Source: Cryptococcus deneoformans JEC21 (lineage: Eukaryota; Basidiomycota; Tremellomycetes; Tremellales; Cryptococcaceae). From it: a DNA stretch of 40,000 nt. Position numbers and translations under genes: made by a program. How positions within the stretch are numbered: the stretch's first letter is position 1; each line of letters begins with the position of its first letter. Below are positions 33,016 to 36,201 of this stretch, piece after piece. The stretch covers positions 552,501 to 592,500 of the forward strand of contig NC_006694.1 in assembly GCF_000091045.1 (NCBI RefSeq). Direction: 5' to 3'. The notes under the pieces were generated by a model. It was given only the letters and a program-made list of their open reading frames with translations. It had not been told where the DNA came from and ran no database searches.

Positions 33016-34788
33016 ATGAGCGTCACTGCTATAACGACCGAAGTTGTTGACGCTAATCCCGCTTGCCCTCGAGATGATCTTGAGTTGGTGGCGATCTCCT
33101 CAGTTGTGGGCCGCGAAGCTGGCGAAAAAGATCCATACAGCCTAAGAAAGAAGATGATTGGGGAAGACGAGATCAAGGATCTTCGCCAGTCAGTCATCAT
33201 GATCTGTCGTCTTCTGTGCTGTATGTAACTGACAGATATTGCTGATTATAAACGATAGGCGCAAAACCGGTGGTGACAAGCTTGCCAGCTTCTACGAGTC
33301 ACAGAATGAGCGCATCAATGACTTATTGAAACCCATGTCCGCTCACTCCGCTGAGGCAGCTCAAGAGGCTAAAGATAATGCCCTCAAAGTGAAGATAGCT
33401 ATCAACGCCTCGTTTATAGCAAACATTGCTTTGGCCATATTGCAGTTGTATGCCGCCATCAGCAGTATGAGTTTGGCCCTCTTTGCCAGTTGCATTGATG
33501 CCGGTTGGTTTCCCCTTATTGATAAATCTAACAATTGCTTATAATTATGATCTATAGTTTGTAAGTCATAGCGCATAATCCAGCATAGTCGCGTCTCTTG
33601 CAAATTATTAACGAGCCATCAGTTGACCCCTTTGCTAATTTGATTCTATGGCTGGCCCATCGACGGTCTGATCGGGCAAATGAGAACAAATGGCCAGTCA
33701 GGGGTTCACGCTTTGAGACCAGTTAGTCCTAGTTCATCATTCTATATTTTACTAACTGATTTGTGTCTTTAGTGTAAGCTACTTATGAAGATCCTTCGTG
33801 CTCAAGTACTGGACTCTGACGTATGTTCACGACTAGCGGCAACATCATTTACGGATCTATTATGGGCGGCGTGAACGTTATCCTTGTTGTGGAGTCCATT
33901 CAGGAATTTGTTACTCACACAGGTGATGATTTGAACGAATTTCATTTGGCGTCTATTATAGCCGTCGCAGTTGCTTTCGGTACGTATCTCAAACTATTTT
34001 CGTTCAACCGGCGATCGGAAATATCTTATGTCTCTGTAGGTGTTAAGTTTTGCCTCTTCCTATATTGCTTGGCCATCCGAAAATCTTCTTCTCAAGTTCA
34101 AGTTCTGTGGGAAGACCACCGAAATGACCTTTTGACGTAAGCGGGCGTAACTTTCGTGATTCTGTGCGTTGACTGCTGATGCAAATGTCAACAGAAATGG
34201 GTTTAGTATCTTGACGGCTGCCGGAGGTGCCAAACTTCGGTGGTGGGTAAGTCATGGCCTGAAAACAAAACGGACCTGAGACGGCTGACAAGTCTCTCAA
34301 AAACAGATCGATCCTATGGGCGCAACGATCATTGCCTTGGTCATCATTATTGTATGGACTCGCACTGTGTATGGTGCGTCATTTGGCTCGAATTCCAACT
34401 TCTGGAATATTAACCACTTGACAGAGCAATTCACTTTTCTGGCAGGCATCACTGCCCCTCCGGATTTCATCAATCTTGTAACGTACAAGGCCATGACATT
34501 CTCCCCTTCTATCACTTCTGTAGACACTGTCCGAGCCTATCATTCAGGTCCACAGTATTTTGTCGAAGTGGATATTGTGTTACCCCCTGAAATGCCTCTT
34601 TGGGAAGCCCATGACATCGCTCAGGATTTACAAGACCAGATCGAGAAGTTGAAGGATGTGGACAGATGCTTCGTGCACGTCGACCATGAGATTTCTCACG
34701 AGCCCGTGAGTTAATTTGTTTCAGTCAGAACTTCAGAAGTCTTGCCTGAATACTGATGAGCATGTAGGAGCACCGCAAGAAGGTATAA
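33016..34788 (+). CDS. Cation diffusion facilitator, Mn-type CDF transporter
   Basis: Proton-coupled exporter of divalent metal, by motif a manganese-type CDF. Exons 33016-33188, 33259-33503, 33558-33560, 33623-33721, 33773 (single base), 33837-33979, 34040-34136, 34195-34246, 34307-34373, 34425-34705, 34768-34788 give 393 residues in frame. Both metal sites are DxxxD rather than the HxxxD of zinc transporters: DAVFD at 138-142 and DHRND at 247-251. Other CDF blocks: SLALFASCIDAVFDPFANLILW, FETIGNIIYGSIMGGVNVILVVESIQEF, DPMGATIIALVIIIVWTRTVY, and a C-terminal cytosolic domain with HSGPQYFVEVDIVLPPEMPL and VHVDHE. Codons 140-141 need the 3-nt exon and codon 174 needs the 1-nt exon. The start at 33016 was chosen over 32959. 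A decayed partial copy lies 470 bp downstream. Confidence 0.9.
33558..33560 (+). other. 3-nt microexon (TTT) in the CDF gene
   Basis: Lies between a 54-nt intron (33504-33557, GTTGGT...CTATAG with CTAAC branch) and a 62-nt intron (33561-33622, GTAAGT...CATCAG with TTAAC). It completes Val140 and starts Phe141 within the DAVFD metal-binding motif. Skipping it as one 119-nt intron would keep the frame but delete Phe and ruin the DxxxD spacing. The same microexon, TCT, is found at the same phase in the nearby pseudogene. Confidence 0.8.
33773..33773 (+). other. 1-nt microexon (T) in the CDF gene
   Basis: Lies between a 51-nt intron (33722-33772, GTTAGT...CTTTAG, branch ACTAAC) and a 63-nt intron (33774-33836, GTAAGC...GACTAG, branch CTGAC). 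It supplies the middle base of codon 174: A at 33721, T at 33773, C at 33837 make ATC (Ile) and give ETIGNIIYG. A single intron over both would shift the frame. Equivalent description: two nested or consecutive introns (a stwintron-like arrangement). Confidence 0.65.
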
Positions 34789-35254
34789 GACTCCCAAAGG
34801 AAGTAGGAAGCCTTCATAAGACTATCGTCTAGGTCATAGAAATTGATGGTACAAGTGTTCCTTTATAGTATGGTAGGTCAAACGTCCCCTTTTTATTTTC
34901 TCTTTACAATGGCGCCTTCGTCTGACAATTAAAGCCCAGTTAGATACGAGAACGAGACGACTCCAGGGTATCGGCAGTGAGACATGCATTTCAGTTCATA
35001 GGAGGTGTCTGCTTCCCGACGAATAAGAAGTATACGTCTATCAATCTTTTCCCTCCTTTTTTCAATTCTGCAAGCTTCTTCTCACCGTTCGGAGAGTACA
35101 AAAGCCGAAAGTGATAAAGTCTATTCGTCTAATGCTCTTGCTACTCTACAAATCTCAATCTGTGAAACGATCCTCGATCACCAAATAAAGTGGCGAACAC
35201 TACCATAATCACTCTCCTACTGCTACTCAGTCTTCGGATGTGAACATCTTACCC
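34789..35254. other. Spacer between the CDF gene and its decayed copy
   Basis: 466 bp with no supportable gene. Should contain the CDF transcript 3' end and the former promoter of the duplicate. No repeat bordering the duplication was noticed. Confidence 0.35.
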
Positions 35255-35923
35255 ATGACTGACTCTCCTTCTCGTAGCCCATACAAATCTTACGACGTGA
35301 AACAAGTCTCAGTTTCCGTTGCGGCCGGCATGGATGTCATCAACGAGAAAGACCATATGTTTCTCAAAGAGAGGATTATCAATGAAAAAGGTGTATGAGA
35401 ACTCAAACAGTAGGTTGTATGGTATTTTGTATAGTGGTGATAGTTGTTTTGACTCGCTGTTTCTGTTCAGACGCCGAAAGGGCAAGAAACTTGCAAAGTT
35501 CTATACCGTGCAAAATTCTAGAATCGACAATCTTCTCAAGCCTATGAGAGCACATACATCAGATTCCTCCCAAGAAAAAGCGAATAAAGCTCTTCGTGTC
35601 AGAATTGTCATTCATGCGTCGTTCATTGCAACTGCTGTCTGGCTGTTTTACAGCTATATGTACCCATAAACAGCGGCGGTTTGGCGTCGTTTGCCAGCTG
35701 TATCGATGCTGGTGGGTGAAAGCGGGTGCATGTAGGGCTGGGTGCTGATCAATAGGATTGACCAGTCTGTAAGTTACTTGGAAGGAGGGAAGACTGGTCG
35801 AGCAAAATGAGCTAAATTGAGCAGTCAATCTGTTGGCGAACATATTGGTCTGGATAATTTATCGAGCTTCGAATAGGGCCGACAAAAATAGATGGCCTAT
35901 TGGTGGCTCGAGCTTTCAATCTG
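35255..35923 (+). pseudogene. Degenerate partial copy of the CDF transporter gene
   Basis: Homologous to the N-terminal half of the adjacent CDF gene, in the same orientation. Exon equivalents: 35255-35409, 35471-35711, microexon 35766-35768, 35825-35923. Matching segments include KLAKFYTVQNSRIDNLLKPM (parent KLASFYESQNERINDLLKPM), LASFASCIDA, and NRADKNRWPIGGSSF (parent DRANENKWPVRGSRF). Damage: an in-frame TGA at 35396-35398 near the end of exon 1, a 1-nt loss relative to the parent in exon 2 (about 35625-35650) that shifts the frame to a TAA, loss of the second Asp of the DxxxD motif (Asn instead) and no recognisable downstream exons. The 99-nt fourth exon keeps exactly the parent length. 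A tandem duplicate that has decayed is the simplest reading. Confidence 0.8.
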
Positions 35924-36201
35924 GTAAGTCCGTTACCTATGCATGCATGGTTTTGCCTTGGTAACCATATCAGTAGTTCAACAGTGTGGCAACTTTTGAG
36001 CAGGTCCTCCGAACTATTACTAACAGATATCCAGCCATGTTCCGACCGTAACTCTCTACCTATGCAAGCTTGTTTTTATTATTCCGAAATCTATTATCGA
36101 CACAACATATCTCCACAACCGCCGCCACTCAAGATGAAGTATGTGCATACAAAGACCAGAGTTTTACAAATTATATATTAAAGATAGTTTCATATGATTG
36201 T

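What the first reader, a model, noticed from the sequence alone, without database searches (positions are those of the whole stretch)
33503..33837. CDF transporter gene appears to use a 3-nt and a 1-nt microexon
In the sequence, two pairs of back-to-back introns flank TTT (33558-33560) and a single T (33773). All four introns have GT starts, AG ends, branch-like CTAAC/TTAAC/CTGAC boxes and usual lengths (54, 62, 51, 63 nt). The 3-nt exon restores the DAVFD metal motif; the 1-nt exon restores the frame and ETIGNIIYG. Without the 1-nt exon no GT/AG choice I tried gives an open, conserved frame. The full model sums to 1182 nt. One-base exons are extremely rare in any eukaryote; alternatives are recursive splicing or stwintrons.
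Basis: partly seen in the sequence, partly recalled or inferred. Interest (0 to 1): 0.8.

Follow-up and report, generated by a model that had tools for sequence, protein, structure and literature searches.

The report
Transporter gene with one-nucleotide exon
A fungal metal-transporter gene is cut up so finely that one of its coding pieces is three letters long and another is a single letter; this is very probably real, but one-letter exons have already been reported in this fungus and in plants.

Summary
A CDF metal-transporter gene (33016-34788, + strand, 11 coding exons, 1182 nt, 393 aa) needs a 3-nt exon (TTT, 33558-33560) and a 1-nt exon (T, 33773), so that the codon of Ile174 takes one base from each of three exons. 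Against an HMM of 61 homologues, chosen by name from outside the Tremellomycetes, these models rank first of 125 and first of 81 open splice models. With GTNNG donors and YAG acceptors, the 1-nt model is the only open one of 21. No single contiguous removal tested restores either motif, which speaks against a stwintron. Two C. deuterogattii annotations of this gene differ only at the two microexon codons: R265 reads as predicted here, strain 99/473 does not. All 7 unnamed short contigs of relatives read as predicted. The 3-nt exon recurs in a diverged tandem copy. No RNA reads of this strain could be examined. The kind is known: C. neoformans exons "as small as 1 bp" were reported in 2014, later plant APC11 and VPS55 and Fusarium CYP621A. 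The likely mechanism is removal of two ordinary short introns one after the other. One correction: other open frames exist, with poor donors or broken motifs.

The parts
33016..34788 (+). CDF metal-transporter gene, CDS from ATG to stop: exons 33016-33188, 33259-33503, 33558-33560, 33623-33721, 33773, 33837-33979, 34040-34136, 34195-34246, 34307-34373, 34425-34705, 34768-34788 (393 aa)
   Evidence: Open spliced frame of 1182 nt; Pfam Cation_efflux and ZT_dimer over cut-off; 93% identity over full length to an R265 protein
33504..33557 (+). intron 2, 54 nt, phase 1, upstream of the 3-nt exon
   Evidence: GTTGGT..TATAG, CTAAC box
33558..33560 (+). 3-nt exon TTT; completes Val140 and starts Phe141 of DAVFD
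   Evidence: First of 125 open models; present as a residue in R265, 7 of 7 short contigs, 105 of 105 non-Tremellomycete rows
33561..33622 (+). intron 3, 62 nt, phase 1, downstream of the 3-nt exon
   Evidence: GTAAGT..ATCAG, TTAAC box
33722..33772 (+). intron 4, 51 nt, phase 1, upstream of the 1-nt exon
   Evidence: GTTAGT..TTTAG, CTAAC box
33773..33773 (+). 1-nt exon T; middle base of the Ile174 codon ATC, whose A and C come from the neighbouring exons
   Evidence: First of 81 open models; only open model of 21 with GTNNG donors and YAG acceptors
33774..33836 (+). intron 5, 63 nt, phase 2, downstream of the 1-nt exon
   Evidence: GTAAGC..ACTAG, CTGAC box
35766..35768 (+). 3-nt exon TCT at the matching codon of a truncated tandem paralogue (introns 35712-35765, 54 nt, and 35769-35824, 56 nt), reading DAVFN
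   Evidence: First of 32 open models, 37.5 bits against 36.3 for the next, which needs a GC donor; intron 35769-35824 has no match to the branch pattern used

Best explanation
The gene encodes a CDF (cation efflux) metal transporter whose pre-mRNA contains two pairs of back-to-back ordinary short GT-AG introns. Removing them leaves a 3-nt exon (TTT) and a 1-nt exon (T) in the mature mRNA. Because two spliceosomes can hardly sit on splice sites one or three bases apart, each pair is most likely removed one intron after the other by intron definition: the first event joins the microexon to one neighbour and the second joins it to the other. The Ile174 codon is thereby built from three exons, one base each. 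Shown here: the sequence anatomy, the frame, the conservation, the failure of single-removal models, and agreement with the R265 protein and with short contigs of relatives. Inferred: that this strain splices it this way, that splicing is sequential, and that wrongly spliced messages are cleared by nonsense-mediated decay.
For: First of 125 and first of 81 open splice models against an HMM of 61 other homologues. Only open model of 21 with GTNNG donors and YAG acceptors in the 1-nt region. Shuffles: 26 and 13 of 20,000. R265 (P0001) and strain 99/473 (P0003) of one species are identical except F141 and I174. 7 of 7 unnamed short contigs carry a residue at 141 and [IVL]GN at 174-176. DAVFD aligns without a gap with the Asp-pair stretch of FieF. 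The 3-nt exon recurs in the tandem paralogue. C. neoformans exons as small as 1 bp were reported from RNA-seq (PMC3990503, section read).
Against: No RNA reads of this strain were seen. Whether the R265 record rests on reads over these junctions was not checked. 28 of 36 genome-annotated Tremellomycete proteins lack the residue at 141 and 30 of 36 lack [IVL]GN at 174-176; I read these as annotation errors, but without their DNA. Skipping the 3-nt exon also keeps the frame with consensus splice sites, so a DAVDP form could exist. Five of the seven contigs have room for introns of this length.
Confidence: 0.94

Rival explanations
1. No microexons: one long intron at each place (33504-33622, giving DAVDP, and 33726-33836, giving ETSYGN), as proteins of other strains are annotated. 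The transporter would lack one residue of the DxxxD motif and carry SY in place of Ile174.
For: Both are open. Nine of the first eleven listed proteins read DAV-DP and ETSDGN, P0001 not and all nine named Cryptococcus (P0002-P0010), P0011 likewise.
Against: 10.3 and 9.2 bits lower. Donor GTCCTA lacks the +5 G that all 10 introns of the model have. DxxD would break the metal-site spacing seen in FieF. Within one species R265 has F141 and I174 where strain 99/473 does not.
Confidence: 0.03
2. Stwintron or recursive splicing: each region is one compound intron removed in two steps with no base left in the mRNA.
For: Each stretch is 115-119 nt, the size of two introns; compound introns are known in fungi (search listing only).
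Against: No contiguous removal tested gives RFETIGNI (0 of 6,795) or DAVFDP (0 of 7,695) whatever its ends. Sequential splicing of the pair is likely, but one or three bases remain.
Confidence: 0.01
3. One-base assembly error or a decaying gene at 33720-33840.
For: A single base decides the frame; the tandem copy downstream is a truncated remnant in this genome.
Against: The protein is otherwise intact and 93% identical over its full length to R265. Annotations from other genomes go wrong at the same codon. Both introns of the pair have good splice signals.
Confidence: 0.02

Closest known systems
1-bp exons in Cryptococcus neoformans var. grubii (Janbon et al. 2014, PMC3990503; intron section read)
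   Same: Sister variety, RNA-seq with manual curation; [quoted passage not shown]
   Different: The section read names no gene; whether this transporter is among them was not seen.
Fusarium CYP621A single-nucleotide exon (PMC12940212; abstract, results and discussion read)
   Same: Fungal coding gene; the 1-nt exon is the middle base of a codon in a conserved motif, found because the flanking exons are out of phase and the intervening stretch is about two introns long; supported there by 18 SRA reads.
   Different: Another gene and phylum; exon is G; no companion 3-nt exon is described in the parts read. That paper calls its case the first for a fungal gene.
Arabidopsis APC11 (PMC4674806; abstract and discussion read) and plant VPS55 (PMC8831610; passages)
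   Same: Constitutive 1-nt coding exon between two introns, missed by annotation, conserved across species.
   Different: Plants; proven there with constructs and RT-PCR.
Candida snoRNA host transcripts with a single-base exon (PMC5033589; passages)
   Same: One base left between two introns in a fungus.
   Different: Non-coding host transcripts, so no reading frame is restored.
Stwintrons (search listing with abstract starts only)
   Same: Two introns in adjoining sequence removed one after the other.
   Different: There nothing remains between the introns; here one or three bases stay in the mRNA.

Membership tests
single-nucleotide coding exon | one base flanked by AG and GT of two acceptable introns | tested here: met
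   TTTAG T GTAAGC; introns of 51 and 63 nt with consensus donors and branch-like boxes
single-nucleotide coding exon | the base is needed for an open, conserved frame | tested here: met
   First of 81 open models; only open model of 21 with GTNNG donors and YAG acceptors; skipping it gives a stop at codon 186
single-nucleotide coding exon | transcript reads across both junctions in this strain | not testable with these tools
   No RNA-seq held. Indirect: R265 protein and 7 of 7 short contigs
3-nt microexon | needed for the conserved motif, and conserved in a homologous copy | tested here: met
   First of 125 open models; TCT in the tandem paralogue, first of 32
stwintron | nested introns whose removal leaves no base between, giving the conserved protein | tested here: not met
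   0 of 6,795 and 0 of 7,695 contiguous removals give the motifs
zero-length recursive splice site | AG directly followed by GT at the junction | tested here: not met
   AG T GT and AG TTT GT
CDF cation efflux family | Cation_efflux membrane domain and ZT_dimer domain | tested here: met
   81.6 bits (cut-off 26.6) and 48.3 bits (cut-off 26.7)
CDF cation efflux family | Asp pair DxxxD in the second membrane helix (helix recalled) | tested here: met
   DAVFD aligns gap-free with DSLVD of FieF; which metal is carried was not tested

The most novel reading that the evidence does not exclude
One gene carries two ultra-small exons (3 nt and 1 nt), and both, above all the 1-nt exon, are old and kept across much of the Tremellomycetes, so that most public proteins of this transporter from Cryptococcus, Kwoniella and kin are wrong at exactly these codons. 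If so, obligatory one-after-the-other splicing of intron pairs has been kept in conserved motifs over long evolutionary time in fungi.
Probability: 0.6. Interest if true: 0.5.

Novelty: new member of a known kind. Interest (0 to 1): 0.38.

Why it matters
It is a clean case for how small an exon can be: one codon is built from three exons, with a 3-nt exon about 210 bases upstream in the same gene, in an organism for which deep RNA-seq has been published (PMC5006051, section read). Two predicted joins (GTTTTTGAC and ACCATCGGC) can be looked for in existing reads. It also points to a recurring annotation error: of 36 genome-annotated Tremellomycete proteins examined, 28 lack the residue at 141 and 30 lack [IVL]GN at 174-176, which would mislead work on metal-site residues.

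Tried and rejected
The single-intron reading was tried and rejected: DAVDP and ETSYGN score 10.3 and 9.2 bits lower, and the second needs a donor without the +5 G. Single contiguous removals of any kind were rejected. A 1-nt counterpart in the tandem paralogue was sought by eye only: similarity ends just there, so it neither supports nor opposes. The DNA of relatives could not be examined: I found no other fungal genome among the tools, the metagenome scan has a cap of zero, and the own genome gives no file. Structure prediction was not used because it would not decide between splice forms. A strict regex count of the motif, IGN in 3 of the named Tremellomycete rows, was replaced by an alignment-column count, [IVL]GN in 6 of 36. 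Rows left out of the 36: P0041 (paralogue), P0121 and P0122 (pieces of the paralogue), and the 7 unnamed short contigs, which are counted apart. The first search listed 120 of 1,852 hits and the second 120 of 588; only listed proteins were counted. The 61 proteins of the HMM are P0044-P0120 less 16 rows, chosen by the names shown. Eight literature searches were made; no listing or passage that I saw names this gene's microexons, but the library holds open-licence papers only, and supplements could not be read.

Full report
What it is. The window lies at C9:552501-592500 of a 19,051,922-base, 14-contig genome. From its size I take this to be Cryptococcus neoformans var. neoformans JEC21 (recalled, not from a call); the eleven best protein matches are all named Cryptococcus. 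The gene on the + strand, 33016-34788, reads as 11 coding exons, 1182 nt and 393 aa. Pfam finds Cation_efflux and ZT_dimer over their cut-offs, and the protein aligns with the FieF pumps of solved structure.

The observation. All stated positions, lengths, GT/AG ends and branch-like boxes were confirmed. All 10 introns of the model begin GTNNG[T/C]; one of them, 33980-34039, has no match to the branch pattern used. The exon TTT lies between 54- and 62-nt introns, the exon T between 51- and 63-nt introns. The reported median coding intron of the sister variety is 55 nt (PMC3990503, section read), so each 115-119 nt stretch is the size of two introns.

Is it more than chance? I enumerated one- and two-intron GT/GC-AG models in each region (941 and 948) and scored the open ones with an HMM built from 61 homologues, chosen by name from outside the Tremellomycetes. 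With GTNNG donors and YAG acceptors, the 1-nt model is the only open model of 21, and the 3-nt model is one of 5 open of 30; another of those five is the plain intron 33504-33622 giving DAVDP. Shuffled sequence with fixed outer ends gave a comparable layout in 26 of 20,000 (1 nt) and 13 of 20,000 (3 nt).

Evidence from relatives. Two proteins of one species, C. deuterogattii, are identical except at the two microexon codons: R265 has F141 and I174; strain 99/473 lacks F141 and has SD for I174. The 2021 R265 annotation was RNA-seq based, with manual curation of chromosomes 9 and 14 and of 873 coding sequences (PMC8022950, abstract and passages); whether the record seen comes from it, or rests on reads over these junctions, was not checked. 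Among 36 genome-annotated Tremellomycete proteins, R265 included, 8 have a residue at 141 and 6 have [IVL]GN at 174-176. All 7 unnamed short contigs have both. Of the other 105 listed proteins, mostly Agaricomycetes by their names but some unnamed, 105 have a residue at 141 and 103 have [IVL]GN. Two of the seven contigs (P0016, P0038) leave 134 and 84 nt beyond the ORF, less than the 230 nt of the four introns, so they are probably cDNA or intronless; three leave 257-295 nt, and two leave 1,755 and 2,319 nt and say less. That these contigs are transcripts is inference.

The tandem copy. Downstream lies a diverged and truncated copy (matches at 35469-35639 with 53% and 35824-35946 with 34% identity). 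Its junction at the same codon again needs a 3-nt exon, TCT at 35766-35768 between 54- and 56-nt introns, first of 32 open models (37.5 bits; the next, 36.3, needs a GC donor) and reading CIDAVFNLLANILVW. So the 3-nt exon is probably older than the duplication. A full-length form of the copy is annotated in C. bacillisporus (P0041), again as DAV-DP. The copy says nothing certain on the 1-nt exon.

How it works. The intron phases are 1 and 1 around TTT, and 1 and 2 around T, so the Ile174 codon takes A, T and C from three exons. Retaining intron 4 or intron 5 gives a stop at codon 175, and skipping the T gives a stop at codon 186. Skipping TTT keeps the frame but turns DxxxD into DxxD. As argued for Arabidopsis APC11 (PMC4674806, discussion read), two introns around one base can hardly be spliced at once; intron definition with sequential removal is the simplest mechanism. 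Which intron goes first is unknown.

Alternatives. No single contiguous removal tested gives RFETIGNI (0 of 6,795) or DAVFDP (0 of 7,695). This excludes stwintrons if the protein is as in R265. An assembly error would have to be matched by trouble at the same codon in many other genomes.

What is known. One-base exons are not new: C. neoformans var. grubii "as small as 1 bp" (2014), Arabidopsis APC11 (2015), plant VPS55 (PMC8831610, passages), Candida snoRNA hosts (PMC5033589, passages) and Fusarium CYP621A (2026). The 2026 paper calls its case the first for a fungal gene; the 2014 sentence suggests otherwise. What may be new is this gene, with a 3-nt and a 1-nt exon about 210 bases apart, one codon from three exons, and the trail of differing proteins in relatives. 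No listing or passage seen in the eight searches names it.

Verdict. Very probably real, a new member of a known kind; moderate interest.

Noticed in passing
35240-36000: A diverged tandem copy of the transporter gene, cut short in this genome: matches end near query residue 181. Annotated longer forms exist in C. bacillisporus (P0041) and, in pieces, C. neoformans (P0121, P0122). By eye its upstream part also seems out of frame.
   Followed up: partly
35923-36035: In the remnant copy the stretch after TTTCAATCTG holds AACAG T GTGGCA and a later CTAAC..CCAG, a possible but weak echo of the 1-nt exon (seen by eye); unresolved because similarity ends there.
   Followed up: no
proteins P0121 and P0122: The C. 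neoformans C23 protein P0121 of the second copy jumps from ..ASYVDA to ECIREF.., leaving out the whole segment with both microexon codons; probably another annotation error at these exons.
   Followed up: no
literature: PMC12940212 (2026) calls the Fusarium case the first single-nucleotide exon of a fungal gene, whereas PMC3990503 (2014) already states that some C. neoformans exons are as small as 1 bp.
   Followed up: partly
33980-34039 and 34374-34424: Retention of these two introns of the same gene would leave the frame open to the normal stop (414 and 411 codons), unlike the other eight.
   Followed up: no
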